Source of the DNA: Chroococcidiopsidaceae cyanobacterium CP_BM_ER_R8_30
GTDB lineage: Bacteria; Cyanobacteriota; Cyanobacteriia; Cyanobacteriales; Chroococcidiopsidaceae
Length of the DNA: 64,000 bases
Reading direction: 5' to 3'
Assembly (NCBI GenBank): GCA_019244235.1
Contig: JAFASY010000227.1
Span: 1-64,000, forward strand
Part shown: positions 30,246-46,100 of the stretch, piece after piece
Numbering within the stretch: position 1 is the first letter of the stretch
Layout: the number at the start of each line of letters is the position of its first letter
Notes under the pieces: generated by a model
What the model was told of the DNA's origin: nothing
What the model saw: the letters and a program-made list of their open reading frames with translations, nothing else
Databases searched by the model: none
Program-made: the position numbers and the translations under genes

Positions 30246-30275
30246 GCCATTTTTCTTCTGAAGCAAACCTTGGAC

Positions 30276-30325
30276 TTAAGGGTTTGCCGGAGCTGCCTCC
30301 GGCAACTTCCTTGAGCAAGCTCAAC
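30276..30325 (+). repeat. palindromic element copy 1 (intergenic, SL1 + SL3)
   Basis: SL1 GCCGGAG-ctgc-CTCCGGC (30286-30303) and SL3 TTGAGC-AA-GCTCAA (30311-30324) are joined by ACTTCC. The central hairpin seen in other copies is missing. It lies between the ABC ATPase gene and the inositol-phosphatase-like gene. Confidence 0.75.
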
Positions 30326-30343
30326 GTCTTGGTTTGAATACCC

Positions 30344-31225
30344 TTACTGCATAAATGGCTGAAACACTGGCACAAGTTGGGCGTGACTAACGACAAGGGT
30401 AGGATAGGAGCGATCACCATATTCTGCTCCATCCTGCATCGGAAACGGCTCTTTCTGCAGCGATATCCAAACTCCTCCAGCTGCCTGAACAATTACCCAG
30501 ACGGCAGCAATATCCCAGATTTTAGGTGTAGCCTCAACACCACCCAGAGTCGCACCAGCAGCCACCATAAGAAAGTTGTAGCTAGCAACACCCAGCATGC
30601 GGAACTTACAGGGAAATTCTGGTTTGAGCATAGATGCGCTGCGAGAACAGAGACTGAAAAAGTGATTGTTACTGGGAGAGTCAGCACTGGTATGGATAGG
30701 ATGGTGATTGAGAAATGCTCCATTTGATTGACTAAACCTATTAGCTCCATCCCAATAGCCGTGAAAGGTTTGCCCCAGTGGCGGCAGATAGACGTAACCG
30801 AAAACTGGTACACCTTGGTAGAGTAAGCCTAAAGAAATTGCCCAAATGGGAATTCCTCTAGTGAAATTAGTCGTGCCATCTAGAGGATCGATCACCCAGC
30901 ACCATTCAGTTCCAAAGAAAATATGTTCGCCTTCTTCGCTGAGAATGCCGTGTCCAGGAAAGGTAGCAGCGATCGCCTCCCGAATTTCTCGATCTGCCCA
31001 CTGATCTGCTTGCGTCACCAAACTGCCATCTGCTTTCTGGGCTTGCCCAAGGAAGTCGAGGCAGTTGGGGTCGGTCGCACCGACCCCTTTATCCGCCGTG
31101 CCGGAGCTTCCTCCGGCGAAGCCTTGGGTAGCCTGCACCTGTCCAAATTCTTTTAATAACTGGCTTCCCACTCTGGCAGTGGTGGCTTGGGCGAAGTCGA
31201 GGACTGTTTGCCAAAAGTCGGTCAT
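30344..31225 (-). CDS. inositol monophosphatase-family enzyme with in-frame repeat insertion
   Basis: A Mg2+/Li+-sensitive phosphatase-fold protein of 293 residues hydrolysing a sugar or inositol phosphate. The metal-site motifs are EEGEH (about residue 97), VIDPLDGTTNFTRGIP (about 112-127) and WDIAAVWVIVQAAGG near the C-terminus. Residues about 33-62 (TQGFAGGSSGTADKG and following) are encoded by a palindromic element and are absent, as I recall, from relatives, where the text runs VQA directly into QKADGSLVTQAD. The insert lies before the catalytic core, so activity may persist. Substrate in cyanobacteria may be inositol-1-P or fructose-1,6-bisphosphate. Confidence 0.85.
   Translation of the reverse strand: MTDFWQTVLDFAQATTARVGSQLLKEFGQVQATQGFAGGSSGTADKGVGATDPNCLDFLGQAQKADGSLVTQADQWADREIREAIAATFPGHGILSEEGEHIFFGTEWCWVIDPLDGTTNFTRGIPIWAISLGLLYQGVPVFGYVYLPPLGQTFHGYWDGANRFSQSNGAFLNHHPIHTSADSPSNNHFFSLCSRSASMLKPEFPCKFRMLGVASYNFLMVAAGATLGGVEATPKIWDIAAVWVIVQAAGGVWISLQKEPFPMQDGAEYGDRSYPTLVVSHAQLVPVFQPFMQ
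31037..31131 (-). repeat. palindromic element copy 2, inside the inositol-phosphatase gene, sense
   Basis: SL1 GCCGGAG-CTCCGGC (arms 31090-31096 and 31101-31107), SL2 GGGGTCGGT-cgc-ACCGACCCC (31067-31087) and SL3, in sense, TTGGGC-AA-GCCCAG (31037-31050). It adds about 30 codons without disturbing the frame. Confidence 0.85.
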
Positions 31226-31349
31226 TTGCTATGCGCTTTTTAAGGGAATTCCTGAGACATCCAAAAGTTTACCTCCTAGACTTGGCAGCACTCCACTACT
31301 ATAAACTGAGGAAATATAAACAAATGTAAAGCTCAAGGAATCAGACGAA

Positions 31350-32300
31350 GTGGAGACAATCGCACTAGGACAAAATGGCCCAGCTGTTAAACCCCTCTGC
31401 CTCGGCACTTGGGCTTGGGGCGACAAACTGTTTTGGAACTACGGCAGCGACTACAGCTTTGAGCAATTGCGAGAGGCTTTCTTAACTGCTATCGAAGTTG
31501 GGCTCAACTTCTTTGACACAGCTGAAGTCTATGGACTTGGGCTTTCAGAGGAGTTCTTAGGACAGTTTAGACAGCAAATAGCTGCACCTGTACAAATTGC
31601 CACTAAATACGGTCCCTTACCGTGGAGATTTAGTGCCCAATCTGTAGCTGACGCTTTGACCGCTAGTCTCAAACGTCTGCAAGTTCAGCGGGTTGAACTT
31701 TATCAGGTGCATTGGCCGTTCAATTTCTTTATGAGCCAAGAAACGCTAATGAATGCTTTAGCAGACGAAGTCCAACGGGGTAGAATTGCTGCAGTCGGAG
31801 TTAGTAACTATTCAGCTGAGCAGATGCAGGAAGCCCACCAGTTATTAGCAGTGCGGGGAGTGCCTCTAGCTGTTAACCAAGTGCGCTACTCATTACTAAC
31901 TCGGCAGATTGAAACTAACGGCATTTTGAACATGGCTCGCCAGCTTAGTGTTACCATCCTAGCTTACAGCCCCTTGGCTCAAGGTTTACTAACTGGTAAA
32001 TACACAGGAGGAGTTAACCCCAAAAAACCGACTGGAGCCCGCCAGTTCGATTCCCGCTTCAGTGCCAATGGCTTGAAGAAAATTACTCCAGTGACTTCTC
32101 TACTACAACAGTTGGCAGAAAAGTACCAACGTACCCCTGCCCAGGTTGCCCTTAACTGGTTAATCGCTCAAGGCAACGTTATTCCCATTGCAGGCGTGAA
32201 AACAGCTGAACAGGTGCGGCAGAATGCAAGTGCTTTAGGTTGGACATTAGATGCAGCAGAATTTGCCCAGTTGGAGCAGGCTAGCCGCCCCTGGCTGTAA
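31350..32300 (+). CDS. aldo/keto reductase
   Basis: A 316-residue NADPH-dependent TIM-barrel reductase. Features: LCLGTWAWGD, FFDTAEVYGLG with the catalytic Asp and Tyr, ATKYGPLPWRF with the catalytic Lys, LYQVHWPFNF with the His, and the NADPH-site end VIPIAGVKTAEQVRQNA. The start is GTG 31350 with AAGGA ten bases upstream. The substrate is unknown. It is alone, divergent from the inositol-phosphatase gene and convergent with the helicase, with a shared terminator. Confidence 0.92.
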   Translation: METIALGQNGPAVKPLCLGTWAWGDKLFWNYGSDYSFEQLREAFLTAIEVGLNFFDTAEVYGLGLSEEFLGQFRQQIAAPVQIATKYGPLPWRFSAQSVADALTASLKRLQVQRVELYQVHWPFNFFMSQETLMNALADEVQRGRIAAVGVSNYSAEQMQEAHQLLAVRGVPLAVNQVRYSLLTRQIETNGILNMARQLSVTILAYSPLAQGLLTGKYTGGVNPKKPTGARQFDSRFSANGLKKITPVTSLLQQLAEKYQRTPAQVALNWLIAQGNVIPIAGVKTAEQVRQNASALGWTLDAAEFAQLEQASRPWL

Positions 32301-32327
32301 GAGAGCAGGGGAGCCCCCTGCTCTCTT
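32299..32327. terminator. bidirectional terminator between aldo/keto reductase and helicase
   Basis: AAGAGAGCAGGGG-agc-CCCCTGCTCTCTT, a 13-bp perfect stem with a 3-base loop. It fills the gap between two convergent genes. Confidence 0.8.
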
Positions 32328-32328
32328 C

Positions 32329-33720
32329 TTAGCTGTTCTTAGACACCGAAGTCTGAGAACGCTTAAGAATGGGCTTGGGAGTGGCAGGTCTTTCTTCTTC
32401 CACATTACCAATGTCTGACTGTAGCCAGGCAGGACGGGTTTGATCGTAAGCCATTTGCAGGGCTGCTGCTGCGATCGCATGAGCATCATACTCTGCCTCT
32501 AACTCTCGCACCATTGGCAAAAATGACGCCAGGCGTTCCCCGGCTAGAGCTTCGCGCACCTGAGACTGCAATTTTTGTAGCTGCCGCGCCTCTATCTGCG
32601 CCTTGGTAGGAATAGAATTGACTTTCCAACTCTGGCGCATGTGGCGTTCGATTTGCTGCTGCTTGCGTCGCTCCAAAGGTTGGACCAGAGAGATCGCTGT
32701 GCCCTCCTTACCAGCTCGACCTGTACGACCGATGCGGTGGACATAGGTTTCTAAACTATCTGGCAAATCGAAGTTAATGACATGTGTCAGATGGTCTACA
32801 TCTAAACCTCGGGCAGCGATATCGGTGGCAACAACCCAGCGTACCTGCTTATTTCGGAATCGCATCAACAACCGCTCCCGCGCTTGCTGACTCAAGTCGC
32901 CGTGATATTCATCGACACTGTGACCAGCTGCCTGTAGCTGATTTGTGAGTTCAGCTGCTGTGCGACGAGTCCGAACAAAAATTAAAGCTGACTCTGGATC
33001 TTCCAGTTCCAAAATGGGCTGTAAGGCTTTAGCTTTCGTCCAATGACGCGGCACTAGATAAGCTACCTGGTTAATTTTTGTCGGGGCGGTTTTAGGCTGC
33101 TCAACTGTGATTGTGACTGGCGAACGCAAAAACCGCGTCACCAAGCGTCGAATCGATATCGGCATCGTGGCAGAGAACAGAGCTGTTTGTCGCTCAGTAG
33201 GTGCAGCTTCAAGGATTTTCTCTACATCCTCAATAAAGCCCATACTCAACATTTCATCTGCTTCGTCTAACACGAGCCACTTAACCTGCTCTAGCCTAAG
33301 ACTACCTCGATCGAGCAGATCGATAACTCGCCCTGGCGTTCCTACTACAATCTGAACACCGCGTTTGAGCTGAAGCATCTGACGGTCGATTGCCTGACCA
33401 CCATAAATTGCCAACACCCGCACTCCTTGGTCACCAACAAAGCTAGTAATTGCCGCACAGACTTGCACAGCTAATTCACGAGTTGGTGTTAGAACTAGCG
33501 CTTGCACACCCTTCTGATTGACATCAAGCTGTTCCAGAATAGGTAGTGAGAATGCCGCTGTTTTACCTGTCCCTGTTTGGGACTGACCAACAACATCTCG
33601 CCCAGCTAAAATCTCTGGGATCGCTTGCGCTTGAATGTTTGTAGGCGTAGTAAACCCTAATTTTTCTAATTGGTTAACGCGAGTTTCACTAAGACCTAAG
33701 TTTGCGAACGAAAGGTTCAT
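32329..33720 (-). CDS. DEAD-box RNA helicase (CrhR/CsdA-like)
   Basis: ATP-dependent RNA helicase of 463 residues. Q motif FTTPTNIQAQAIP, motif I SQTGTGKTAAF, Ia PTRELAVQV, Ib TPGRVIDL, motif II VLDEADEML, III FSATMP, IV ALIFVRTRR, V ATDIAARGLDVDHL, VI HRIGRTGRAGKEG are all seen. The C-terminal tail of about 90 residues is basic then Pro-rich. The sequence fits the cyanobacterial redox- and cold-controlled CrhR group, but I did not use that name as a symbol. Upstream rimO is on the same strand, 58 bp away. Confidence 0.94.
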   Translation of the reverse strand: MNLSFANLGLSETRVNQLEKLGFTTPTNIQAQAIPEILAGRDVVGQSQTGTGKTAAFSLPILEQLDVNQKGVQALVLTPTRELAVQVCAAITSFVGDQGVRVLAIYGGQAIDRQMLQLKRGVQIVVGTPGRVIDLLDRGSLRLEQVKWLVLDEADEMLSMGFIEDVEKILEAAPTERQTALFSATMPISIRRLVTRFLRSPVTITVEQPKTAPTKINQVAYLVPRHWTKAKALQPILELEDPESALIFVRTRRTAAELTNQLQAAGHSVDEYHGDLSQQARERLLMRFRNKQVRWVVATDIAARGLDVDHLTHVINFDLPDSLETYVHRIGRTGRAGKEGTAISLVQPLERRKQQQIERHMRQSWKVNSIPTKAQIEARQLQKLQSQVREALAGERLASFLPMVRELEAEYDAHAIAAAALQMAYDQTRPAWLQSDIGNVEEERPATPKPILKRSQTSVSKNS

Positions 33721-33778
33721 CTATTCTCCTAATATTGTTTGTTGTGCGATATAAGGTTGGGTTAAAGACACCTAAAAT

Positions 33779-35116
33779 CTAGCCATAATTGACTTGACCA
33801 TAAAGGTCATAGATATCAGCGTCGACAATCGAGACTGGTACTAAAGAGCCCAGTGGAACTCGACTGTCTGAATTGATATTGCTGTTGACATAGACTAAAC
33901 CATCAACCTCTGGAGAGAACCGAGCGGAGCGGCCAATCAATTCTCCTGTCTGAGGATTTTCTTGCTCAACCAGCACATCAACAACTTTGCCCACTTGAGC
34001 TTGATTCTTCTTCAAAGAGATTGGTTGCTGCGCCGCCATCAGAATGTCGCGCCGCTGGTCCATTCCACTTTGAGGTAGCTGCCCAGGTAAGTGGTAAGCG
34101 GGAGTTTCCTCCTCTGGAGAAAACGTAAATACACCTACATGGTCAAATTCATGACGCTGGATGAACTGTAGCAGGTGTTGAAAATGTGCCTCTGTTTCTC
34201 CTGGGAATCCAACAATGAATGTGGTTCGCAGTACTGCTTGAGGCAACGCTGTCTTGATTCGTTCAATCACACCATCGTTTACCTGCCCTTGCCAAGGTCG
34301 GTTCATACTACGGAGAATCTCTGGATGAGAATGCTGTAAAGGTAGATCCAGGTAAGGCAAGATATTAGGAGTTTCCTGGATCGCGGCAATCACATCTGGA
34401 GTCAACCCAGTTGGATATGCGTAATGCATCCGAACCCAAGGAACATTGACTTTACCTAATCTCCGTAGCAGTTCTGCCAGCTTTGGCATGCCATACAGGT
34501 CAATGCCGTAGTTGGTGGTAATTTGAGAAATGAGAATTAATTCCTGCACTCCCTGCGCGGCAAGCAGCTCAGCCTCCGCCACGATTGATGCAATCGAGCG
34601 AGAGCGCTGCTTGCCGCGCAGGTGTGGGATAATACAAAAAGCACAGCGATAATCACACCCTTCTGCTACCCGCAAGTAAGCTACGCCTTCTGATGTAGTA
34701 CGGTAGCGTGGTACCGTCTCATCTGCAATATAAGTTGGCGTATCTGAAACCTCATTGACGCGCTCGCCTGCCTCCACCCGCTGAATCACATCTACGATTT
34801 TGTGGTAATCTCCTGTTCCTACTAACGCTACTGCCTCTGGCAACTCTTCCAGCAATTGAGTTTGGAAGTGCTGGGCCATGCAGCCAGTGATCACGATTTT
34901 TTTGTCTGCTTCTGCCAGTTCCACCAGAGTCCGGACAGACTCTTCACGTGCGGCTTCTATAAAGCTACAAGTGTTGACAATGACGTAGTCTGCTAACTCT
35001 TCATTAGTATCTACTCCATAGCCAGCTTTGACTAAAAGCCCTAACATGTGTTCGGTGTCGATTCTGTTCTTCTCACAACCCAAGTGAGAAATTGCAATAG
35101 TTGGCTTTTCCCCCAT
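33779..35116 (-). CDS. rimO: ribosomal protein uS12 methylthiotransferase
   Basis: A radical-SAM enzyme that adds a methylthio group to Asp of ribosomal protein S12. The N-terminal UPF0004 domain starts [20 protein letters not shown], with further cysteines in [10 protein letters not shown] and ITGCMAQHF. The radical-SAM cluster motif is [11 protein letters not shown]. The TRAM domain ends the chain ([13 protein letters not shown]). ATG 35116 ([13 protein letters not shown]) is preferred to TTG 35152 because it gives the family N-terminus. Length 445 is normal. Confidence 0.94.
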
Positions 35117-35594
35117 ACATTGGAATGGTACAGCTTTGGTTAAGTTAATCAACTAGCTTAGTGGACTCAACCTCAAGAGTGTTAGCCCTACTATATATAG
35201 AAATAATCCCAAGAATACTTAGAGTGCCGTTTAAACGAATTCGGGCAGTTTGAGAATTGCTATGTACTGGCGCTTCTCTTTCATTTTAGAAAACCACCCT
35301 CATAATGAGAGAGTGAGGGTAACTACGCTCTTGCTTGAGTAACGCTTCACTGAGGAGGGAGTACACCCTAGGCGTATGTTGGAGCTAATGCTTCCTTAAT
35401 GCCGATCCCCAAGTCTTACGTTCCTTTGAGTTTAGGTTGTGGCAAACTCATCTTCTGGGTTCTGTTTTATCTTAACATATCTTATGGGTATTTCCACGCC
35501 AATTCCTAAGCTAGGGATAGGTATTTTTTTCACTCTGGAAAACTCATCAAATTTAAGTTAAGCTTTTCCATCTGAAGTCCGTAATGATAAACCT
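35117..35594. other. 478-bp intergenic region between divergent rimO and btpA
   Basis: No frame or RNA gene recognised. It contains AT-rich stretches with an ACCCTCATAATGAGAGAGTG block near 35295 that is weakly palindromic. Promoters for rimO and btpA must lie here, but I see no clear -35/-10 pair. Confidence 0.4.
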
Positions 35595-36455
35595 GTGGAC
35601 TTAAATCAGTTGTTTAAAACTCCTCATCCAGTTATTGGTGTTGTTCACTTGCTGCCGCTACCAGCCTCGCCGCAGTGGGGAGGCAATATAAAAGCAGTCA
35701 TTGATCGCGCCGAGCAAGAGGCAACAGCACTAGCAAGCGGTGGGGTTGATGGTCTCATTGTCGAGAATTTTTTCGACGCGCCGTTTACTAAGAGTCAAGT
35801 TGATCCAGCCGTTGTTAGCGCTATGACTTTAATCGTCCAGCGACTGATGAATCTAGTCACGCTGCCGATGGGCATTAATGTTTTGCGCAATGATGCCCAG
35901 AGTGCCTTGGCGATCGCGACTTGTGTCAAGGCACAATTCATTCGTGTCAATGTATTGACAGGGGTGATGGCAACCGACCAAGGGCTAATTGAAGGACAAG
36001 CACATCAACTCCTCCGCTATCGTCGGGAGTTAGGCAGCAATGTCAAGATTTTAGCTGACGTACTGGTAAAGCATGCCCGACCTTTAGGCTCACCCAATTT
36101 GACTACCGCTGTTCAAGATACAATTGAGCGCGGTTTGGCAGATGGGGTTATCCTATCTGGCTGGGCTACTGGTAGCCCTCCTAACCTAGAAGATCTAGAA
36201 CTGGCATCAGCTGCGGCTGACGGCACTCCTGTTTTTATTGGTAGTGGTGCTAACTGGGAAAATATTGCCACTCTGATGCAAGCAGCAGATGGTGTCATTG
36301 TCTCCAGCTCTCTCAAGCGCCATGGTCGTCGCGATCAGCCAATAGATCCGATTCGCGTGAGTCAATTTGTGCAAGCAGCTAAACAAAGCATAGAAAGGAA
36401 AACATCACAAGCATCAGCAGCCTCTAATTCCGAGAGGCTGACGTCTGAAGTGTAA
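35595..36455 (+). CDS. btpA: BtpA family protein (photosystem I biogenesis)
   Basis: A TIM-barrel-like protein of 286 residues first known from Synechocystis, where its loss destabilises photosystem I reaction centre proteins. Recognisable parts are IGVVHLLPLPASPQWGG, DGLIVENFFDAPF, GINVLRNDAQSAL, FIRVNVLTGVM and GSGANWENIATLM. The start is GTG 35595 (VDLNQLFKTPHPVIG), as no ATG is in frame. The last 20 residues are low complexity. It is followed after 26 bp by the VKOR-thioredoxin gene. Exact biochemical function is unsettled. Confidence 0.9.
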   Translation: MDLNQLFKTPHPVIGVVHLLPLPASPQWGGNIKAVIDRAEQEATALASGGVDGLIVENFFDAPFTKSQVDPAVVSAMTLIVQRLMNLVTLPMGINVLRNDAQSALAIATCVKAQFIRVNVLTGVMATDQGLIEGQAHQLLRYRRELGSNVKILADVLVKHARPLGSPNLTTAVQDTIERGLADGVILSGWATGSPPNLEDLELASAAADGTPVFIGSGANWENIATLMQAADGVIVSSSLKRHGRRDQPIDPIRVSQFVQAAKQSIERKTSQASAASNSERLTSEV

Positions 36456-36481
36456 ATTTACCTCTCGCCCCTCACTTCACA

Positions 36482-37450
36482 ATGAGTCGTCAACCTACTA
36501 TTCCCTGGATGCATCGCTGGTCTCGGTTACTTATTGCCGCAACCGCAGGACTAGGAGCCTTGACCACTGCTTACCTTACAGTAGTCAAGCTAACACAAAG
36601 CACAGCAGCCTGCCCCACAGCAGGCTGCAATACGGTCCTTAATAGTGACTATGCTACTGTTCTCGGACAGCCCCTAGCCTTGTTCGGTTTCCTAGCTTAC
36701 ACCGGCATGGTGATATTTGCCCTGACCCCTCTAGCGATCTCCAAAGAAGAGAAGCCAGAACTCTACTCCACTCTAGAAAATTGGACTTGGTCACTACTTT
36801 TAGTCGGTGCAATCGCCATGAGTGTCTTCAGCGGCTACCTGGTGTATCTACTGACTTTCAAGATTCAAGCAGCCTGTCTTTATTGCATTGCCTCGGCTCT
36901 CTTTTCTCTCAGTCTTTTAGTACTCACAATCATTGGTCGTGCTTGGGAGGATGTCGGGCAAATCGTGTTTACTAGCATTGTTGTTGGCGTTGTGGTACTA
37001 GTTGGTACCCTAGGTATCTATGCTGTCAAACCAACAGCCGCGATGGCTGAACTTCCTCCCGAATCTGCTGCTCTCAGTCTGCTCCCATTTGGTCAACCTA
37101 TTCCTGGGATTGGTTGGTCTATTACCACCACCTCTGGCAAGGCAGAAATCGCCCTAGCAAAGCATCTGCAAAAAATAGGTGCCAAAGAATACATTGCCTG
37201 GTGGTGCCCTCATTGTCACGAGCAGAAGCAACTATTTGGCAAAGAGGCGTATCGTGAAATTAATTCTATTGATTGTGCCTCCAGTGGGGTTAGCCCCCGT
37301 CCTGAATGTCAGGCAGCCCATGTTGAGAGCTACCCCACTTGGGAAATCAATGGTAAATCCTATGAGGGCGTCCAATCTTTAGATCAACTGGCAGAGATTT
37401 CTGGCTATACAGGTCCGCGTGATTTTAAAAACTTCTCTGGAGCGTTTTAA
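36482..37450 (+). CDS. VKOR - thioredoxin-like fusion (disulfide-bond formation, LTO1-like)
   Basis: A thiol oxidase for extracytoplasmic disulfide formation. The membrane part (four or five helices, residues 15-185) has the loop Cys pair in CPTAGCN and the active-site CLYC before the last helix, as in VKOR. The C-terminal part (about residues 220-322) is a thioredoxin-like domain with WWCPHCHEQKQLF. Such fusions replace DsbB/DsbA in cyanobacteria and assist photosystem assembly in plants (LTO1). Both active CxxC motifs are intact. It probably shares a transcript with btpA. Confidence 0.93.
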   Translation: MSRQPTIPWMHRWSRLLIAATAGLGALTTAYLTVVKLTQSTAACPTAGCNTVLNSDYATVLGQPLALFGFLAYTGMVIFALTPLAISKEEKPELYSTLENWTWSLLLVGAIAMSVFSGYLVYLLTFKIQAACLYCIASALFSLSLLVLTIIGRAWEDVGQIVFTSIVVGVVVLVGTLGIYAVKPTAAMAELPPESAALSLLPFGQPIPGIGWSITTTSGKAEIALAKHLQKIGAKEYIAWWCPHCHEQKQLFGKEAYREINSIDCASSGVSPRPECQAAHVESYPTWEINGKSYEGVQSLDQLAEISGYTGPRDFKNFSGAF

Positions 37451-37459
37451 GGAACAGGG

Positions 37460-37479
37460 TGTAGGGTATACACCCTACA
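37460..37479. terminator. hairpin at convergent ends of VKOR and nadB
   Basis: TGTAGGGT-atac-ACCCTACA, an 8-bp perfect stem. It overlaps the nadB stop region. No T-run on either side, so termination strength is doubtful. Confidence 0.5.
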
Positions 37480-39292
37480 ACCGCGGATGAAGGGGCGAAT
37501 CGCATTCGCCCCAACTGCCTCCCCCACCCCCTGTTTGCTCAGACTTAAACCATTTGTCTTGTTGTACTAGCGTGTGAACTTGCCAGTTAGGATCTTTTTG
37601 GGGATAGTCTAGTCGGTAGTGTCCACCTCGGCTTTCGGTGCGAAAAGCTGCACTTTTAAGAATTAAGTTAGCCACATCTAGTAGGTTGTGGGTTTCTCCC
37701 CATAGCCGCAATTGCCGCTCAACATCTGGTAAGTTAAATTTGGCTGGCTGACCGGGGGGTAAAGACAGCAAAAATTGGCTCAGGGGCAGGGCGGCAAACC
37801 TTTGCTGCCAGGTTTCCACTTGATCGATAGCTGCCTCCAAACCAGCTTGTTCTCGACAAATGCCAGCCCGCTGCCATACCAGACGCGGTAGCTCTTGGTG
37901 CAGTTTTTCTAGCCAAGCTATTGATTGGAATGGCTGCCTGTCGTCTTCGAGACAGAAAGTCTGGACAGAGGGCTGGGCTTCTGATATGTCTTTTTCAGAT
38001 GAATCGGAAGCAAGCTCAACGGTTCGCTGGAGGTCGCTCCAGCGCGGCGGATAAAGGGACGAGGCTCCCTCGTCCCAACCGCCTTGACTTCCTTGAGCAA
38101 GCGCAATATCAGCCATTTGAGAACCAAACACAATACATTCCAGCAGAGAATTACTGGCTAAGCGATTAGCACCATGCACCCCGGTGCTAGCTGCTTCCCC
38201 TATCGCGTATAAACCAGGGATGGAGGTTCGGTTCATCAAATCTGTAGCGATCCCACCCATCCAGTAATGTGCCGCTGGGGACACGGGAATCGGTTCTGAG
38301 AATACGTCAATGCCCCAGCGTTGACAAATCTGAATAATATTGGGAAATCGGTGACGAATTCTAGCAGCTGGGATTGGTCGCAAATCTAACCAGACATGCG
38401 CTGTAGCAGGATCGGCTGAAGTTCTTTGTAAGTGACTGAAAATGGCGCGACTGACTACATCTCTAGGCGCAAGTTCACCCGCACTGTGGTAATCGAAGGC
38501 GAAGCGCCTTCCTTCAGTATCTACTAGGTGGGCACCCTCGCCTCGAACTGCTTCACTGATCAAAAAGCGACCAGGCTTGACCAAGGCTGTAGGGTGAAAT
38601 TGCACAAATTCTAGGTCTCGCAGCAATGCTCCCGATCGCCAAGCGATCGCCACCCCATCTCCTGTACTGACCTCTGGGTTAGTTGTCTGAGCAAACACCT
38701 GACCACCACCCCCTGTGGCTAGCACCACGGCTCCCGCTCGTATCCAGCTGACCTGATTCTGATGGATTAAACTGATCCCTTGGCAGTGCTGAGTTTGAGG
38801 ATGGAGCCACAGACTGAGTGCGAAAGCTTGCGGAATTACTTTTACGTTCTGGCGTTGCAGAACCTGAGCCTTCAAAGTGGAGATCACCTCTCGCCCTGTG
38901 GTATCTGCTGCGTGCAGGACGCGTTTGCGAGAATGAGCTGCCTCCAAGGTTAAAGCCAACTCGCTACTGTTACGGTCAAAAGCTACTCCTAGTTTCAGCA
39001 GTGACTGGATACAGCTAGGCGCTCGTTGTGCCAAAAAGTTTACCGCTTGGCGATCACATAAACCTGCTCCTGCTTGCAGCGTGTCTTCAGCATGCAGCAG
39101 CGGGGAATCTTCTTCTGAAATTGCAGCAGCAATACCACCCTGTGCCCACTCACTGGCAGAAAGTGACAGAGTATCTTTAGTAATTAAGCCGACTTGGAGT
39201 GTGTCTGGTAGACACAGTGCTGTATACAGTCCCGCAGCACCTGCTCCGACTATTAGAACATCGAATTGGTTCTTGAGATGAATTTGAGACAA
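37475..39292 (-). CDS. nadB: L-aspartate oxidase with two in-frame repeat insertions
   Basis: The FAD enzyme oxidising L-aspartate to iminoaspartate, the first step of de novo NAD synthesis. FAD site FDVLIVGAGAAGLYTALC, then ASEWAQGGIAAA, SEAVRGEGAHLVD, the substrate-site HPTAL and GVHGANRLASNSLLECIVFG are intact. Residues about 390-430 (QGSQGGWDEGASSLYPPRWS) are encoded by a palindromic element read in antisense, and the last 15 residues (SWGECDSPLHPRL) come from a second partial copy. Total length 605 exceeds the usual 530-560. The start is TTG 39292, since no ATG is in frame near MSQIHLKNQFDVLIVG. Insertions lie outside the catalytic core, so function is probably kept. Confidence 0.92.
   Translation of the reverse strand: MSQIHLKNQFDVLIVGAGAAGLYTALCLPDTLQVGLITKDTLSLSASEWAQGGIAAAISEEDSPLLHAEDTLQAGAGLCDRQAVNFLAQRAPSCIQSLLKLGVAFDRNSSELALTLEAAHSRKRVLHAADTTGREVISTLKAQVLQRQNVKVIPQAFALSLWLHPQTQHCQGISLIHQNQVSWIRAGAVVLATGGGGQVFAQTTNPEVSTGDGVAIAWRSGALLRDLEFVQFHPTALVKPGRFLISEAVRGEGAHLVDTEGRRFAFDYHSAGELAPRDVVSRAIFSHLQRTSADPATAHVWLDLRPIPAARIRHRFPNIIQICQRWGIDVFSEPIPVSPAAHYWMGGIATDLMNRTSIPGLYAIGEAASTGVHGANRLASNSLLECIVFGSQMADIALAQGSQGGWDEGASSLYPPRWSDLQRTVELASDSSEKDISEAQPSVQTFCLEDDRQPFQSIAWLEKLHQELPRLVWQRAGICREQAGLEAAIDQVETWQQRFAALPLSQFLLSLPPGQPAKFNLPDVERQLRLWGETHNLLDVANLILKSAAFRTESRGGHYRLDYPQKDPNWQVHTLVQQDKWFKSEQTGGGGGSWGECDSPLHPRL
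37483..37520 (+). repeat. palindromic element copy 4 (partial, SL2 only), nadB 3' end
   Basis: GCGGATGAAGGGGCGAAT-cgc-ATTCGCCCC followed by AACTGCCTC. The flanks GCGGATRAAGGGG and CCCCAACTGCCTC are those of copy 2, but SL1 and SL3 are missing. It supplies the final codons of nadB in antisense. Confidence 0.7.
38009..38106 (+). repeat. palindromic element copy 3, inside nadB, antisense
   Basis: SL1 GCTGGAG-gtcg-CTCCAGC (38026-38043), GGCGGATAAA, SL2 GGGACGAGG-ctc-CCTCGTCCC (38056-38076), AACCGCCTTGACTTCC and SL3 TTGAGC-AA-GCGCAA (38093-38106). nadB reads through it on the opposite strand. Confidence 0.85.
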
Positions 39293-39399: not shown

Positions 39400-39837
39400 T
39401 CATCTGTAGATGCCGTTGTTATAGCGGTCATCCCCCTCATTGAAGACAGTATCTGCCTCAGTGACAGTAAAGTTATCCAGGTTAGCTTGCAGAATTTCTT
39501 TCTGGCGCTCGCTTAATCCTGGAATCGATAGTACATCGTTCACTTGACTGTAAGGAGCATTGCCAATAATTTTCCGGGCTAGGTGGGGATATAGACCTGG
39601 ATACTTCTGAAAGGCTCGCACATTTGTGTTGTTCAAATCAATCTTTTTGCCGAACTCCGTTCCTAGCTTGGCATCCGCTCGGTTTCTTAGAGGAGTTGGG
39701 GCTTCAGCCGCCAGAATAGGTGTGGCAAGGTGGAAGGTATTAATGCTCAATCCCGCCGCCAAACTGTATTGGGGGAACACGCCAAACCATCCCAGACATC
39801 CAACTAACAAACCCAAAATTATTAATAAGCGTTTCAC
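39400..39837 (-). CDS. psbU: photosystem II 12 kDa extrinsic protein PsbU
   Basis: PsbU binds the lumenal side of photosystem II and stabilises the oxygen-evolving cluster. A signal peptide (residues 1-28, [17 protein letters not shown] with AAG-like cleavage region) and a second Ala-rich segment precede the mature start near [20 protein letters not shown]. The helix-hairpin-helix body reads [20 protein letters not shown] and [20 protein letters not shown]. Mature length is about 100 residues, as usual. The start is GTG 39837. A terminator follows. Confidence 0.95.
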
Positions 39838-39970
39838 AGTCTCTACACCTCATTTCCCTCAAAGTGGAATTAATGCACAGCATTCAACAGAAACTACTAT
39901 ATAGTCTAATGATCTCGATAATACGACTACTTCTAGCTTCTGCCCTACTGTTGCAAAAATTTACCTCACT

Positions 39971-40696
39971 TTATGCCGCTGCCGCCGCTATCCAAAACAG
40001 AATATCAACCAAGATAGTACTTAATATTGCACCACTAAAAGCCCAATGGTGGAGTTTTCCTTGGCGTAAAGGTAAAATGCCGAGCACTAGCAGCACTAGG
40101 GCTAAAATGACCGCCCAACCCTGTCCCCAAGGTGTCTGGACTTGCTCAATTGCACTCTGTAGGATGGGCGATGCCAGTATTGGGTCAACATGCATTAGCT
40201 GCCGCCAGTAAGGGATTAAACCTACTATATAGAAGTAAGCATCTGTCAGTGCCGTGCCAATCAAAGACCCTAAATAGAAAAGGTTTCCTATCTTGCCTCT
40301 ACCTTGTCTCAAACCGACTAAGGCAAATGGAAGACCAATTGATTCTACTGGTATGTGAAGTAGAGGTTCCCAGCGTAGCCAACCCCAGTAGAGCGACCCT
40401 GCAAGCCAACTCCAGCTAAACCCTAGTAGTAGATCGCCCCAGAATCGGGTTGAAGAACGAGACATTAAAGAGAGGCTTAACCACAGCCAGAACGCTGTCA
40501 GGGCGAGGCTCACTACGGGTAGCGATCGCACTAGTGGCGCTTCAATGAATACTGGTACTGTCACCAGAAACACAGCTGCGGTGAAGACCATCCAGGTCTG
40601 TTGAGCTCTGATTTGCCACCACCCGCGAGTAGAGTCACATCTATCTCTACCCAAGGGGGCAGAACTGGTATGCACGGACAACGTATTGTTAACCAA
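39971..40696 (-). CDS. DUF3120 conserved cyanobacterial membrane protein
   Basis: A 241-residue protein with six or seven membrane helices of a family restricted to cyanobacteria (PVFIEAPLVRSLPVVSL; FSWSWLAGSLYWGWLRWEP; GSLIGTALTDAYFYIVGLIP). The start at TTG 40696 is uncertain: the first 30 residues are polar and poorly conserved in my memory, and a later start is possible. It precedes psbU on the same strand with a 133-bp gap. No function is known. Confidence 0.82.
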   Translation of the reverse strand: MVNNTLSVHTSSAPLGRDRCDSTRGWWQIRAQQTWMVFTAAVFLVTVPVFIEAPLVRSLPVVSLALTAFWLWLSLSLMSRSSTRFWGDLLLGFSWSWLAGSLYWGWLRWEPLLHIPVESIGLPFALVGLRQGRGKIGNLFYLGSLIGTALTDAYFYIVGLIPYWRQLMHVDPILASPILQSAIEQVQTPWGQGWAVILALVLLVLGILPLRQGKLHHWAFSGAILSTILVDILFWIAAAAA

Positions 40697-40915
40697 CGGA
40701 ATGTTAATATTATTTACGTAACTTTACTTTACTCAAGATAACACAACAAAAATCCCCCCTGGGGGCATATTTATCCTAACTTAATTTTTGACGACATCTT
40801 GAGGAAAGGTGGGGAGATAAGGAGATAGGGAGAGAAACTTCTCCACATAAACTGACTGGCAGTGTTGTTTCCTATAGGCTATACATGAAGGATTGTCTAA
40901 AGCCGCAAAACCCCT
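40697..40915. other. divergent intergenic region with polypurine tract
   Basis: 219 bp between the DUF3120 and uppP genes. It contains CCCCCCTGGGGG (40756) and a G/A-rich tract GGTGGGGAGATAAGGAGATA (about 40809) resembling other polypurine stretches of the window. No promoter called. Confidence 0.4.
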
Positions 40916-41812
40916 ATGATGGTCTCTCTACTCTTAACTACCCCGACCCATCCCAGTGATGTGGATTTCGGATTTGTTCAATTGGGTTGGTTTAAGGTGA
41001 TTGTTTTAGGCATTGTCCAAGGCATTACGGAGTTGCTGCCAATTAGCAGTACTGCCCATTTACGAGTGGTACCAGCTTTGTTGGGATGGCAAGATCCTGG
41101 CTCTGCCTTCTCTGCGGCAATGCAGCTTGCTAGTCTAATAGCCGTCATCACTTATTTTTGGCAAGACATAAAAGAGTTGGTAGGAGGGACAGTGAGGGCA
41201 GTTGCCAGACGCAACTACCAGTCAGAACCCTTTCGAATAGTAGTGGGAATTGTGGTAGGTACAATCCCGATTTGCATTAGTGGTTTGCTGTTAAAGAAGC
41301 TCCTGAACATGCCTGATTCCCCTTTGCGGAGATTGGAAGTTGTTGGGATAGCTTGTATCGTCATGTCTCTTTTATTAGCTTTGGCAGAAATGCAGGGCAA
41401 GCACAATCGTAGATTCAATCAGCTAACCCTGTGGGACGGACTTTTAGTCGGAGTTGCTCAAGCTTTTGCACCGATTCCAGGGGTTTCCCGTTCAGGGTCG
41501 ACAATCACAGCTGCTATTTCTCTTAAGATGGAGCGAGAGACAGCGGCGAGATTCTCCTTTCTACTAGGCATCCCAGCTGTGCTGTTGGCAGGAGCGGTAG
41601 AGTTACATGCCCTGTTTCAGGCACATCTTAATGCTGAGGGTTGGCTCATATTGTTAGTAGGTTTGATCTCTGGAAGTATTTCAGCCTTCTTCGCCATCTT
41701 CTTGCTCCTGCGCTACCTGGAAAAACAGAGTACTTGGGTATTCGTTTGGTATCGATTGGGACTAGGTATATTCTTGCTGGTTAGCCTAAAAACAGGATTT
41801 TTACACAACTAA
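40916..41812 (+). CDS. uppP: undecaprenyl-diphosphatase
   Basis: A membrane phosphatase that recycles undecaprenyl diphosphate to the monophosphate carrier used for peptidoglycan and polysaccharides. The first active motif is GIVQGITELLPISSTAH with the Glu and Ser-Ser-Thr; the second is PGVSRSGSTITAAISLKMER. About eight helices; length 298 is slightly above the usual 270 because of an N-terminal extension. It serves the carrier-dependent glycan pathways implied by the 2-21.6 kb locus, though not in that operon. BacA is a synonym. Confidence 0.95.
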   Translation: MMVSLLLTTPTHPSDVDFGFVQLGWFKVIVLGIVQGITELLPISSTAHLRVVPALLGWQDPGSAFSAAMQLASLIAVITYFWQDIKELVGGTVRAVARRNYQSEPFRIVVGIVVGTIPICISGLLLKKLLNMPDSPLRRLEVVGIACIVMSLLLALAEMQGKHNRRFNQLTLWDGLLVGVAQAFAPIPGVSRSGSTITAAISLKMERETAARFSFLLGIPAVLLAGAVELHALFQAHLNAEGWLILLVGLISGSISAFFAIFLLLRYLEKQSTWVFVWYRLGLGIFLLVSLKTGFLHN

Positions 41813-41854
41813 AACTCGTTTATTTTGCATAGCATGAACTGACTGTTGAGAGTT

Positions 41855-43180
41855 ATGAGCCTTTCGATTCTTCCTGCCTTAATTACGACGGTTCTGCCTG
41901 GTTCGATTGCCGCTGAAGTGGGATTCGAGCCAGGTGATCGCCTGATGACAATTAACGGTACTCGACCACGCGACTTGATCGATTACCAGTTCTTGTGTGC
42001 TGACGAAGTCTTAGAACTAGAAGTCTTAGATGCATCTGGGAAAACTCATCAAGTTGCAATTGAGAAAGACTACGACGAAGACCTAGGTTTAGAATTCGAC
42101 AGTGCCCTCTTCGATGGGCTAATTCAATGCAATAACCGCTGCCCTTTTTGTTTCATAGATCAACAGCCTCCTGGTAAAAGGCAGAGCTTGTATCTCAAAG
42201 ATGACGACTACCGCCTCAGCTTTCTGTATGGCTCGTACCTGACCTTAACCAATCTATCACCACGGGAATGGCAGCGGATTGAGCAAATGCGACTCACTCC
42301 CCTTTATGTTTCTGTTCACGCTACAGAGCCAGAAGTCAGAATCCGCCTATTGAAAAATCCTCGGGCTGGTCAAATTTTGACCCAGTTGGAGTGGTTTCAA
42401 GCCCGACGACTGCAAATTCATGCCCAGGTCGTTGTTTGTCCTGAGATCAACGATGGCATACATTTAGAGCAGACGCTACTAGATCTGGCTTCATTTCATC
42501 AAGGCGAATTACCAACCGTTGCTTCAGTAGCAGTTGTACCAGTGGGGTTAACTCGCTTTCGTCCTACAGAAGATGAACTGATACCCGTGAGCCGAGATAA
42601 GGCGGTTGAGGTCATCGTTCAAGTTCAAGCGTTGCAACAGAGATTTCGGCAGCAGCTACAGTCTAACTTTGTTTGGTTAGCCGATGAGTGGTTCCTGATA
42701 GCTGGTACAGAATTGCCGCCTGAATCCCATTACGAAGACTACCCCCAAATTGGTAATGGTGTGGGTTCCATTCGCTCCTTCCTCAAGCAATTTCAACACG
42801 CCGCTATATCTCTACCGCCACGGTTGAGCCGCCCACGAATGCTGACTTGGGTGGTGGGCAACGCTGTTGAACAAGCCTTTCAACCCATCGTTCAACGACT
42901 CAACCAAGTTGAAGGTTTAGAAGTCAATATGGTAGCACTGTGCAGCAATTACTGGGGACAGACAATGACTGTTACAGGATTACTTACTGGTCAAGACTTA
43001 CTGCACAAACTTCAAGGTAAATACTTGGGCTGTGCTATTTTGTTACCTGCTATAATGCTCAAGCACGGAGATTCTTGTTTTTTGGATGACGTGACAGTTG
43101 AAGAACTAGCCCGTAAAATTGGGACACCTATTGTCCCTGTTAGGGATGTTGAAGAGCTAATCAATGCTTGTATTTCTTAA
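41855..43180 (+). CDS. TIGR03279-type radical-SAM/DUF512 protein
   Basis: A cyanobacterial putative Fe-S oxidoreductase of 441 residues. An N-terminal PDZ-like part (VLPGSIAAEVGFEPGDRLMT) precedes a radical-SAM-like cluster motif CNNRCPFCFIDQ and a DUF512 C-terminal part (PIGNGVGSIRSF variant, RMLTWVVGNAVEQAF). ATG 41855 is preferred to TTG 41846. The gene is nearly universal in cyanobacteria and often adjacent to the sugar-hydrolase-like gene that follows, with which it overlaps by one base here. Substrate unknown. Confidence 0.9.
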   Translation: MSLSILPALITTVLPGSIAAEVGFEPGDRLMTINGTRPRDLIDYQFLCADEVLELEVLDASGKTHQVAIEKDYDEDLGLEFDSALFDGLIQCNNRCPFCFIDQQPPGKRQSLYLKDDDYRLSFLYGSYLTLTNLSPREWQRIEQMRLTPLYVSVHATEPEVRIRLLKNPRAGQILTQLEWFQARRLQIHAQVVVCPEINDGIHLEQTLLDLASFHQGELPTVASVAVVPVGLTRFRPTEDELIPVSRDKAVEVIVQVQALQQRFRQQLQSNFVWLADEWFLIAGTELPPESHYEDYPQIGNGVGSIRSFLKQFQHAAISLPPRLSRPRMLTWVVGNAVEQAFQPIVQRLNQVEGLEVNMVALCSNYWGQTMTVTGLLTGQDLLHKLQGKYLGCAILLPAIMLKHGDSCFLDDVTVEELARKIGTPIVPVRDVEELINACIS

Positions 43181-46100
43181 TGGTTATTAAATCTTATTTC
43201 TCAGTATTAAAATCGAGAACAGAATCTAAACAAGGAACCCAGGATCAAGACTCAGGGATCAGAAGAGGAGACTTTTCTGGTCCTTGGCTTTTGGCACCTG
43301 GCTTCTGGGTTCTAACTTTTTACTTTTTACTGTTTCAGCCAGTTGCCGTCCTAGCACAGCAAATGGTGTTGAGCGTGGTCAAAAGCCAGGAAAATGCTAG
43401 TCAATGGGCGGGAATTCAAGCCCGCTTGCAAGCAGCTGGAGTGAATTACTGCGCGATCGATCTCTCTAGCGTGAAGACTGCAGCAGATTTGGGCAATACA
43501 GGTGTACTGTTTTTGCCAAACATTGAGACCTTGACACAAACCCAGGCAATCGCGTTGAATGAGTGGCTCAGCCAAGGTAGGCGTGTGATTGCGAGTGGTC
43601 CAGTAGGCAACCTTTCCGAGCCTGGAGTGCGTCAGATGTTAAGAACTATGCTCGGTGGTTATTGGGGATTCAACCTCACGACTCCAGCTAAATTGGAACC
43701 TCTGCGCAATAGCACACAAGATGCTTGGCTCCATACACCTGGACTTGCTGGAAATGTGAGTGGCGGCGTTGTCATCCCAACAAGCTTGACCAGTCAACCT
43801 GCTGCCATCTGGGAGTCAAAAAGTAGCGCTCCAGCTGTCGTGACAACCGAGCAATCAGCTCTATTAGGCTGGACTTGGGGAGCAGATGCCGCATCATCAG
43901 TCCAACTAGATAGTGCCTGGTTAAAAGCGCTCCTCAGCCATTATCTTCAACTTGCCCCTGGGATAACAACCAATTCCACCTGCCCCACCCCAGTCGTGCA
44001 AACTGCCACCGCCTCTCCTAACCCAAAACCAGCAACAACGCAACCCAAACCCACCCCTACCGCCCATCCAATCCTCCCTGTCTCAGTAGTGCAAGCAGCT
44101 CCCTCAAAACCAGCAGCCAAACCCCAACCTAAAACACCCCCGATTCACCCTGCAACTCCAAACGCGACAGCCAAAAAACCCCAACCTAAAACACTCCCGA
44201 TTCACGCTGCATCCCCACCATCATCCTCAAGTAACATTTCTGCCCTTCTCTACTCCCCTCCACTCCCCTCCTCCTCAACCCAGCAGTCAAAGGAGGCAAC
44301 TGCCCAGTTAATCCGCCAAGGTTTAGAAGTTGTGCCCGGTACTAGAGAGCCAGTTGACAGCATCCAAGCTATCTCCTTGCCGCAAGAGCTAGAAAACATG
44401 ATTGGTCGGTTTGAGAGTGCAGAGCTAGATGCTAATGCAAAAAATAGCGCATTAGGGACTCAAGGGTTTGCCGGAGGCGGCTCCGGCACGGCAGATGAAG
44501 GGGAGGGACGTGGGGACGGGGAACCCGTCCCCTTTAAGTCCCGTGTCGGTGCGACCGACCCCAACCGCCTCAACTTCCTTGAGCAAGCTCAATCAAGGTC
44601 AGTAAGTGAGGGTACTGAAGTCGCCAGTACCAATGTGAGTCTTCTCGGCTCAGCAATGCCAGTGACAGCACCAGCTACAGTTGTTTCCCAAGCCAGAGAT
44701 ATTGCCAAAACCTTACCCCAGCTGATTGAACAAAAAAACTACACAGCTGCGCGACAGCAGTGGCTTAAAGCCCAGCAGCTCTTGTGGAACAACTACCCAA
44801 CAAACCGCAATTTAGCTCAGCCAGAAATCCGGGCAATATGGTTAGATAGAGGCACGATTGTAGGTGCTGGATCGGAGCAACGACTGGCACATATATTTGA
44901 TGAGTTAGCGGCAGCAGGAATTAATACAGTATTTTTTGAAACCATCAACGCGGGTTACCCCATCTACCCCAGTAGAGTAGCACCACAGCTAAATCCCTTA
45001 GTACATGGGTGGGACCCATTAGCCGTCGCTGTCAAATTAGCGCACGAGCGCGGTATGGAGTTACATGCTTGGGTATGGACATTTGCGGTGGGCAACCAAC
45101 GTCACAATCTGCTAGTTGGTCTACCAGCCGATTATCCCGGACCAGTGCTTGCCGCTCATCCTGATTGGGCAAGCTATGACAACCACGGTAGTTTGTTTCC
45201 CCCTGGTCAAGGCAAGCCTTTCTTGGACCCAGCTAACCCAGCAGCGCGACAATACTTGATGCAAATGCTTGAGGAGATCGTCAGTCGCTATCAGGTAGAT
45301 GGGCTACAGTTAGATTACATTCGCTATCCCTTCCAAGACCCAAGTGCTGATCGAAGCTACGGCTATGGGATAGCAGCTCGCCAAATGTTTCAGCAGATGA
45401 CCGGGGTTGACCCAATACAAATTTCTCCTAGTGATCGCGACCTTTGGCAGAAGTGGACAGATTTTCGGACCCAGCAAATTGATAGCTTTGTAGCGCGAGT
45501 GTCTCATCAACTGCGGCAACAGCGTCCTAACTTGATCCTCTCGGTCGCCGTCTATCCCTTCTCAGAACACGATCGAATTAACAAGCTACAGCAGCACTGG
45601 GAAGTCTGGGCGCGGCGCGGAGATGTCAATTTGGTTGTTCCGATGACCTATGCTATAGATACCTATCGATTCCAGCACCTCATCCAACCCTGGCTGACCT
45701 CAGCAGACCTGGGTCCGACCTTAATCTTGCCAGGAATCCGCCTGCTGGATCTGCCATTAGCCGAGGTAATGGATCAAATCCAGTTAGTGCGGGACTTACC
45801 AGCGAGCGGTTACTCCCTGTTTGCTACAGAAAATTTCAGTCGTGACCTAGCAACCGTTTTCCAGCATACTCAAGGCAACGACAGTAGTACAGATCAGGCT
45901 CCTATCCCCTACCGTAAGCCTTTCCAGACTGCAGCTGCCCGATTTGCTGCTTTGGAGCAGGAATGGAATTTTCTTTTAGCTAACCAGCGATTGTGGTTAC
46001 AGGAGCCAGACCTGTCATTATGGCGCACGCAATCTCAAGAGTTAGGAAAGACCTTGAACCATCTGGCGGCTGCTCCTTCTATTTCTGGCTCAGCAGCGGC

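What the first reader, a model, noticed from the sequence alone, without database searches (positions are those of the whole stretch)
30276..44592. Dispersed modular palindromic element that spreads inside open reading frames
At least five related copies (30276-30325, 31037-31131, 37483-37520, 38009-38106, 44458-44592) and one degenerate one (61087-61132) share a fixed order of parts: SL1 (GCCGGAG/CTCCGGC), GGCGGATAAA, a hairpin of variable sequence (SL2), AACYGCCTYRACTTCC, and SL3 (TTGAGC-AA-GCTCAA). Five of the six lie inside protein genes or at their ends, and none breaks its frame. Copies 2 and 5 are read in sense (both give FAGG, SGTAD and ATDPN), copies 3 and 4 in antisense. Rickettsia palindromic elements are the closest known parallel. 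I know of no named cyanobacterial counterpart of this design, though palindromic repeats as such are common in the phylum.
Basis: partly seen in the sequence, partly recalled or inferred. Interest (0 to 1): 0.8.

Follow-up and report, generated by a model that had tools for sequence, protein, structure and literature searches.

The report
Tiny mobile hairpins inserting inside genes
A cyanobacterium carries at least a hundred copies of a roughly 45-base hairpin that drops into the five-base site CTCAA and, because 45 bases are exactly 15 codons, can sit inside protein genes without breaking their reading frame.

Summary
The unit is a 45-nt palindrome (15 codons) inserted right after CTCAA and ending in its own CTCAA. 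Genome-wide the short form dominates: 63 of 103 collected copies are exactly 45 nt (lower bound). Empty sites show the gain: cas1 and GGT gained 45 nt, inositol monophosphatase 87 nt, and CTCAA is intact at two of these sites in a relative. Units also sit in the CTCAA of other copies. With each unit removed, 48 of 74 units of 3n length lie inside ORFs, against 2 of 29 of other lengths; CTCAA sites of the window give 142 of 196. Two helices covary. In the order, 9 of 388 genomes match well, own included. This is an RPE-like protein-coding palindrome in a cyanobacterium, and it resembles the small dispersed repeats of Elhai et al. 2008 (recalled). The mobilising enzyme is unknown: none of 7 Y1 proteins scanned is a RAYT. 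An IS200/IS605-type single-strand route is inferred, not shown.

The parts
   Evidence: CM hit E 3.5e-12; sequence
30275..30324 (+). short copy, type A, 45-nt unit, between two ORFs
   Evidence: CM hit E 3.7e-15
31037..31128 (-). long copy, 87-nt unit (45 + 42-nt inner module), in frame and in sense inside the inositol monophosphatase gene 30344-31225
   Evidence: absent from the 14 family orthologues printed
37486..37519 (+). inner module alone (GATGAAGG-hairpin-CCAACTGCC), antisense to the last codons of nadB, without SL1 or SL3
   Evidence: pattern match; sequence
38015..38106 (+). long copy, 87-nt unit, antisense and in frame inside nadB (37475-39292, -)
   Evidence: the element's 29 residues absent from 16 of 16 orthologues and from the 16 family orthologues printed; the linker is variable in length
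44459..44592 (+). long copy, 129-nt unit (45 + 84), sense, inside the GHL10-domain gene 43168-46278
   Evidence: absent from the 16 family orthologues printed
61081..61130 (+). degenerate short copy, type D (CTCGA...GAGCGCAAGCTCCA), sense inside ORF 60942-63083
   Evidence: sequence; SL1 match with 2 mismatches; no CM hit at E <= 0.01, weakest copy; orthologues not examined
30344..31225 (-). host gene: inositol monophosphatase family
   Evidence: PF00459
37475..39292 (-). host gene: L-aspartate oxidase (nadB)
   Evidence: PF00890 and PF02910; orthologues; the name NadB is recalled
43168..46278 (+). host gene: GHL10 glycoside-hydrolase-like protein
   Evidence: PF02638
60942..63083 (+). host ORF of the degenerate copy, no Pfam match

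Best explanation
It is a very small, non-autonomous mobile element. Shown: the insertion unit is usually 45 nt, follows a CTCAA target (preferred context A-CTCAA-NNT), and ends in a second CTCAA, so the host gains 45 nt. In types A to C a 9-bp hairpin is closed by a 7-bp helix: the CTCAA at the left junction plus two unit bases pair with an internal CNTTGAG. The same TTGAG can instead pair with the terminal CTCAA (TTGAGC-AA-GCTCAA). Because 45 nt is 15 codons and at least two sense frames and one or two antisense frames are open in the four type examples, an insertion adds a short peptide and does not break the frame. Units of other lengths are found almost only outside genes. Composite copies arise by insertion of units into each other at CTCAA, and by an inner 42-nt-type palindromic module. 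Inferred: one internal guide (TTGAG) recognises both ends and the target by base pairing on a single strand, and an enzyme supplied in trans, most likely an IS200/IS605-type Y1 (HUH) transposase, cuts 3' of CTCAA and pastes the unit. The host benefit is probably nil: the element is selfish and merely tolerated, and occasionally diversifies proteins.
For: Copy number: 60 SL3 cores against 1 in the control; 106 CM rows at E <= 0.01, some being the same palindrome read on the other strand; 46 type-D tails against 0 in the control; 103 copies collected and measured, 63 of them exactly 45 nt, 77 with CTCAA at both ends. Empty sites: cas1, 45 nt gained at CTC-AAT, the same CTCAA present in G005, whose Cas1 is 88% identical. 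GGT, 15 residues against E. coli GGT 2e0w and 45 nt against G012 and G010. Inositol monophosphatase, 87 nt, with CTCAA intact in G003. NadB and the GHL10 protein. Nested: at C28 and C78 a 45-nt unit lies exactly after the internal CTCAA of a type-D copy. Frame: with units removed, 48 of 74 units of 3n length lie in ORFs, 2 of 29 others, Fisher 4e-8; CTCAA sites of the window 142 of 196. Structure: 57 distinct copies from several genomes, 89.7% of cells paired, 99 double changes against 30.6 shuffled, 0 of 500 shuffles, slid controls at most 42.4% paired; pair 6-36 occurs as GC, CG, AU and UA. Target context: A at -1 in 66 of 103 against 26% of 212 window CTCAA sites, p 5e-16; T at +3 in 51 of 103 against 21%, p 1e-10. 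Hosts have known domains: 27 of 30 scanned have Pfam matches, e.g. Cas1, DnaX parts, Tex. Y1 transposases are present: 11 matches in the genome, two of them fragments.
Against: No enzyme is tied to the element. The 10 Y1 loci printed show no ends matching it. Only two of 11 Y1 loci have a copy nearby (L203, L209), not clearly more than chance. None of 7 Y1 proteins scanned reaches the RAYT cut-off. The TTGAG-target pairing is nearly invariant, so covariation supports it only at the two bases beside the target and in a few copies (window copy 2 CCCAA/TTGGG/CCCAG; C136 GTCAA/ATGAC/GTCAA). Type D lacks the internal TTGAG, its one example folded does not form the same structure, yet it spread too. 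A 5-bp target duplication at a preferred site fits the same empty sites. No excision or new insertion was observed, and no host with an insert is shown to work. The cas1 host departs from its relatives about 120 nt before the contig's end, so it may be truncated or misassembled.
Confidence: 0.78

Rival explanations
1. A DDE-transposase MITE: the unit inserts with a 5-bp target-site duplication at preferred CTCAA sites, and the two CTCAA are the duplication.
For: Empty sites have one CTCAA and filled sites two. In a few copies left and right vary together: GTCAA/GTCAA, CCCAA/CCCAG, and CCCAA/CCCAA in G010.
Against: The unit has no terminal inverted repeats at its ends: the inverted pair CTCAAGG/CCTTGAG leaves a 9-nt tail on one side only. 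The target is asymmetric and nearly fixed, unlike usual duplications (recalled). Of the 25 copies with a truly changed end (30 rows, 5 set aside because their left end was forced), 20 differ on one side only.
Confidence: 0.2
2. An RNA-intermediate route, as Elhai et al. proposed for cyanobacterial small dispersed repeats (recalled): a structured RNA copy is inserted through base pairing of TTGAG with CTCAA and then copied into DNA.
For: Strong RNA-compatible covariation, internal sequence complementary to the target, nested copies, and a raw sense excess in genes of 42 to 10.
Against: The sense excess shrinks to 42 observed against 34.3 expected, p 0.011, once open frames and target supply are allowed for. 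Antisense insertions exist. No reverse transcriptase was looked for.
Confidence: 0.2
3. No transposition: the copies are quasi-palindromes made by replication slippage, or spread by microhomology-mediated recombination between CTCAA repeats.
For: CTCAA direct repeats flank most units, and several copies lie in short tandem repeats in G010.
Against: Sequence subfamilies are dispersed over many contigs with unrelated flanks and conserved ends. A preferred A at -1 and T at +3 outside the unit asks for a recognising factor.
Confidence: 0.1
4. The peptide is selected: copies are kept because they add a useful linker or domain to proteins.
For: Sense bias is slightly above expectation, p 0.011.
Against: Two sense and two antisense frames are used. 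The share of 3n units in ORFs (48 of 74) is no higher than that of the window's CTCAA sites (142 of 196), as for neutral inserts. Sites differ from host to host.
Confidence: 0.05

Closest known systems
Rickettsia palindromic elements (Ogata et al. 2000, 2002; seen only through passages of the review PMC10969869, of PMC2996958 and of PMC3733652)
   Same: Dispersed palindromes found in frame inside many unrelated genes, with the peptide kept.
   Different: RPEs are about 150 bp (review passage), in an obligate intracellular alphaproteobacterium. Here the unit is 45 nt with a fixed CTCAA target, nested copies and a cyanobacterial lineage. Sequence relatedness was not tested.
Small dispersed repeats (SDR) of cyanobacteria, Elhai et al. 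2008 (paper not held; SDR5 within HIP1 confirmed in a passage of PMC4390886; the rest recalled)
   Same: Very small cyanobacterial repeats with covarying structure, precise insertion into a short target, nesting in copies of themselves, and occurrence in heptameric tandem repeats (recalled). Several G010 copies also lie in AATTCAAAACTCAA-type repeats.
   Different: SDRs are recalled as 21-27 nt; SDR5 sits in HIP1 (GCGATCGC), not CTCAA. In-frame spread through dozens of protein genes is, as far as I recall, not part of their description. Sequences could not be compared.
REPINs / REP with RAYT (PMC3116915, PMC3733652, passages seen)
   Same: Small palindromic, non-autonomous, many copies per genome; some REPs lie inside ORFs.
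   Different: No GTAG or CGTC tag at the foot, no RAYT at cut-off among 7 Y1 proteins scanned, about half of the copies in ORFs, and a fixed target.
Protein-coding palindromes of Wolbachia and Methanocaldococcus jannaschii (named in a PMC2996958 passage)
   Same: In-frame palindromic insertions in housekeeping genes.
   Different: Other phyla; sequences and targets not compared.
IS200/IS605 single-strand transposition (recalled)
   Same: Insertion 3' of a short asymmetric target, hairpins, and short internal guides pairing with the cleavage sites.
   Different: Guide order differs from IS608 (recalled), one guide serves both ends, and no IS with matching ends was seen.

Membership tests
Rickettsia palindromic element-like protein-coding palindrome (as a kind) | palindromic repeat inserted in frame in unrelated genes | tested here: met
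   48 of 74 3n-length units in ORFs; 27 of 30 hosts scanned with Pfam domains; empty sites
Rickettsia palindromic elements (the named family) | about 150 bp, conserved RPE peptide, in Rickettsia | tested here: not met
   unit 45 nt, cyanobacterial relatives; RPE sequences and peptides themselves not compared
Elhai SDR families | unit of 21-27 nt (recalled) | tested here: not met
   63 of 103 copies are 45 nt, 20 are 46 nt
Elhai SDR families | precise insertion into a short target, nested copies | tested here: met
   CTCAA target and nested 45-nt units; target differs from HIP1
Elhai SDR families | sequence of SDR1 to SDR8 | not testable with these tools
   paper not held
REP / REPIN | GTAG or CGTC tetranucleotide at the foot of the palindrome | tested here: not met
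   no such foot in the alignment of 58 copies, most of which start CTCAA and end GCTCAA; read by eye
REP / REPIN | RAYT transposase in the genome, flanked by the element | tested here: not met
   7 of the 11 Y1 matches scanned: all over the IS200/IS605 cut-off, none over the RAYT cut-off; the other four are two near-copies of scanned genes and two fragments
IS200/IS605-mobilised MITE | ends shared with a TnpA-bearing copy in the genome | tested here: inconclusive
   no matching ends seen beside the 10 Y1 loci printed, by eye and pattern
IS200/IS605-mobilised MITE | fixed short target kept at the left junction | tested here: met
   a duplication of this target is not excluded
DDE MITE | terminal inverted repeats at both ends | tested here: not met
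   inverted pair CTCAAGG/CCTTGAG leaves a one-sided 9-nt tail
DDE MITE | target-site duplication | tested here: inconclusive
   CTCAA once at empty sites and twice at filled ones, which a duplication or an element-borne end would both give

The most novel reading that the evidence does not exclude
A mobile element of 45 nt in which one internal five-base guide (TTGAG) recognises the target, the left junction and the right end by base pairing, so that the whole mobility logic fits in 15 codons. Its length is kept at 45 because the copies that survive and seed new ones live inside genes. This would be a guide-paired micro-transposon that evolved to be translated, with a mechanism distinct from REPIN/RAYT and from IS608.
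Probability: 0.25. Interest if true: 0.85.

Novelty: new variant of a known kind. Interest (0 to 1): 0.66.

Why it matters
In-frame selfish palindromes were described mainly in Rickettsia and Wolbachia, and in one archaeon; relaxed selection in intracellular bacteria is an easy explanation for the first two. Here a cyanobacterial lineage related to Gloeocapsopsis (not known to me as intracellular) carries about fifty such inserts in open reading frames, many with known domains, with empty sites in relatives, an identified five-base target and a defined unit. That makes the old question of how coding palindromes spread and why proteins tolerate them directly testable, and it may link the Rickettsia elements with the cyanobacterial small dispersed repeats.

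Tried and rejected
Exact short-form pattern in genome contigs: 0 hits (records of this or a very near genome may be left out there), so the family is not widespread at that stringency. Tail pattern in viral contigs: 0. Short units of types A and C in plasmids: no match. Rfam on the window at gathering scores: 0 matches. Y1/RAYT adjacency as proof of the mobiliser: not supported.

My first length count (70 copies of 45 nt) forced 19 type-D copies to fixed ends; one search replaced it with measured ends (63). The raw sense bias (p 7e-5) mostly disappeared when per-copy open frames were counted (p 0.011), so I do not build on it. Calling a copy 'in an ORF' on filled sites is biased against frame-breaking lengths; one search repeats the test on empty sites with the same outcome. 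In one search the inner-helix offsets were one off; one search supersedes it. That the inner 42-nt module is an independent mobile element was considered: 6 exact matches, all in this genome, 5 inside long copies and 1 alone, so undecided.

Rows dropped before the count of 103: five partial or replaced CM rows (one re-entered as type D); other-strand reads of the same palindrome; most CM rows with E above 9.1e-4; tail matches without a CM row; the 16 of 46 type-D matches without loci, unless a CM row held them; five long type-D copies. So 103 is a lower bound. The ten long forms are those that one pattern found in the fetched loci; at least C5:7812 and C304:4853 and C219:9169 appear to hold further long forms that I did not measure.

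On rereading I checked the cas1 host: its C-terminal part departs from the relative's near the contig's end.
Full report
WHAT IS THERE. The window is contig C11 of a 5.54 Mb genome in 328 contigs. The closest NadB relatives are cyanobacterial. A genome of the same family (G002) shows, over the stretch printed, the NadB sequence of Gloeocapsopsis crepidinum LEGE 06123, a member of the Chroococcidiopsidaceae in the NCBI taxonomy; the window's genome itself is unnamed. Comparing copies from the whole genome shows that the common form is short: CTCAA, then 45 nt, GG.TTCGCCGGAG-loop-CTCCGGCGACTTCCTTGAGCAAGCTCAA, so that CTCAA stands at both ends. Types differ in the helix beside the left end: A (CTCAAGG...CCTTGAG), B (CTCAACG...CGTTGAG), C (CTCAAAG...CTTTGAG) and D (tail GACTCAAGAGCGCAAGCTCAA, no internal TTGAG).

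HOW MANY. A covariance model from 22 copies gives 106 rows at E <= 0.01 in this genome, some of them the same palindrome read on the other strand. Type-D tails add more: 46 matches with at most 2 mismatches, 0 in the control. I collected 103 copies: 63 have a 45-nt unit, 20 a 46-nt unit, and 77 have CTCAA at both ends. Elsewhere, 10 of 60 genomes (own included) match at E <= 0.01; apart from the own genome and G010 the best E-values lie between 1.5e-4 and 0.01. At E <= 1e-5, 9 of 388 genomes of the order match, own genome and G010 included; that search scored only 15 candidates per genome, so copy numbers there are lower bounds. Of 13 copies from other families printed, 11 have a 45- or 46-nt unit, most with CTCAA at both ends. 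G005, whose Cas1 is the closest in the family (88%), has no match at E <= 0.01. The family is thus probably old and patchy, with an expansion in this lineage.

STRUCTURE. On 58 copies of 45 nt from this and other genomes (57 distinct; type D left out), the outer helix (columns 1-7 with 35-41) and the hairpin (10-18 with 23-31) pair in 89.7% of cells, with 99 double-sided changes against 30.6 in shuffles (0 of 500) and at most 42.4% pairing in slid controls. The pair at the first unit base occurs as GC 19, CG 16, AU 11 and UA 2, with 8 cells unpaired. The alternative tail hairpin TTGAGC-AA-GCTCAA is also kept (92.7% of cells) but hardly varies, so it is weakly tested. Single strands of one type-A copy (both strands), one type-C and one type-B copy fold accordingly; a type-D copy does not, and a long copy does so in part.

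EMPTY SITES. cas1: G005 has AAC CTC AAT TTG where this genome has GAG CTC AA + 45 nt + T TTT. This host's C-terminal part departs from the G005 protein about 120 nt before the contig's end, so the gene may be truncated or misassembled there. GGT: 15 residues extra against E. coli GGT 2e0w, and 45 nt against G012 and G010. A TauD-like protein has 15 extra residues against 1oih, aligned as two gaps; a P-type ATPase shows gaps at the site. Window copies: inositol monophosphatase lacks the 29 residues in the 14 family orthologues printed, and one of these (G003) reads TCT CAA AAA at the site, that is, CTCAA intact. NadB: the element's residues are absent from 16 of 16 orthologues and from the 16 family orthologues printed. 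GHL10 host: absent from the 16 family orthologues printed. In NadB and the GHL10 host the region varies in length, some orthologues having other residues there, so the exact junction cannot be read from relatives. Inside the genome, copies at C28 and C78 show a 45-nt unit placed exactly after the inner CTCAA of a type-D unit, and tandem 90-nt arrangements occur. The bases outside the unit are biased: A before CTCAA in 66 of 103 (window CTCAA sites 26%), T at +3 in 51 of 103 (21%).

FRAME. Removing each unit and asking whether the rejoined site lies within an ORF of at least 150 codons gives 48 of 74 for units divisible by three, 2 of 29 for others (Fisher 4e-8), and 142 of 196 for untouched CTCAA sites of the window. 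With a looser rule (100 codons) the figures are 51 of 74 and 4 of 29. Insertion into genes is therefore close to what target supply predicts, and frame-breaking units are purged. Of 30 host proteins scanned, 27 have Pfam domains, among them Cas1, DnaX domains, Tex, a LytR-type protein, response regulators and kinases. Whether any host with an insert works was not tested. Sense copies of type A read QGFAGGSSGDFLEQAQ or LKGSPEAAPATSLSKL. Sense exceeds antisense, 42 to 10, but 34.3 are expected from open frames and target supply (p 0.011).

LONG FORMS. Ten copies found by one pattern in the fetched loci carry extra sequence between CTCCGGC and the tail; nine of the ten units are multiples of three (87, 87, 87, 87, 87, 129, 132, 138, 174; the other is 124). 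Others seem to exist that were not measured. The core GATRAAGG-hairpin-CCAACNGCC has 6 exact matches here and none in 18 other family genomes. One of these six is the lone module at 37486-37519.

MECHANISM. Shown: target, unit, orientation, frame-keeping and nesting. Inferred: base pairing of TTGAG with target and ends, single-strand transfer, and an enzyme in trans. Two copies show left end, internal guide and right end changed together (window copy 2 CCCAA/TTGGG/CCCAG; C136 GTCAA/ATGAC/GTCAA, four of five bases pairing), which fits the guide idea. Of 25 copies with a changed end, 20 are changed on one side only, and type D spread without the guide. The genome has 11 Y1 matches; the seven proteins scanned are IS200/IS605 type, none RAYT, and the ten loci printed show no ends like the element. 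A copy lies 0.7 kb from one Y1 gene in L203, which chance can give.

KNOWN KIN. From passages of the MITE review PMC10969869, of PMC2996958, PMC3733652, PMC3116915 and PMC4390886: in-frame palindromes are known in Rickettsia, Wolbachia and Methanocaldococcus; REPs sometimes lie in ORFs; and SDR5 inserts precisely into HIP1. The abstract of Elhai et al. 2008 is recalled, the paper is not held; Ogata et al. 2002 is not held either. In the listings of the searches run (open-licence PMC only; titles and starts of abstracts seen) I saw no paper that announces this element. I file it as a new variant of the protein-coding palindrome kind, not as an RPE, SDR or REPIN.

Noticed in passing
G010 loci L099, L100, L101 (L032, L298, L302): Copies in this relative sit inside degenerate heptad repeats of the AATTCAA/AACTCAA type, which themselves supply CTCAA targets.
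   Followed up: partly
window 16275-16610: Six overlapping matches in register at 42-nt steps, a tandem repeat inside ORF 15472-17040.
   Followed up: no
window 3471-3607 and 5274-5410: A 137-nt duplicated stretch, 72% identical, 1.8 kb apart.
   Followed up: no
window 37459-37479: A separate small palindrome (GTGTAGGGTATACACCCTACA) just before the lone inner module at the end of nadB.
   Followed up: no
L203:1474-1878 with 277-1446(-) and a type-D copy at about 2598-2648: IS200/IS605 tnpA beside a divergently placed ORF that looks like TnpB (by eye), with a copy of the element about 0.7 kb downstream.
   Followed up: partly
G000:C67:31808-31986 (L030, L107): The longest composite copy measured, 174-nt unit, with several nested hairpins, still in frame near the start of a histidine-kinase ORF.
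   Followed up: partly
L006:53-895(-): Cas1 carries a 15-residue insert from the element, and its C-terminal part departs from the G005 protein close to the contig's end, so the gene may be broken or the contig end misassembled.
   Followed up: partly
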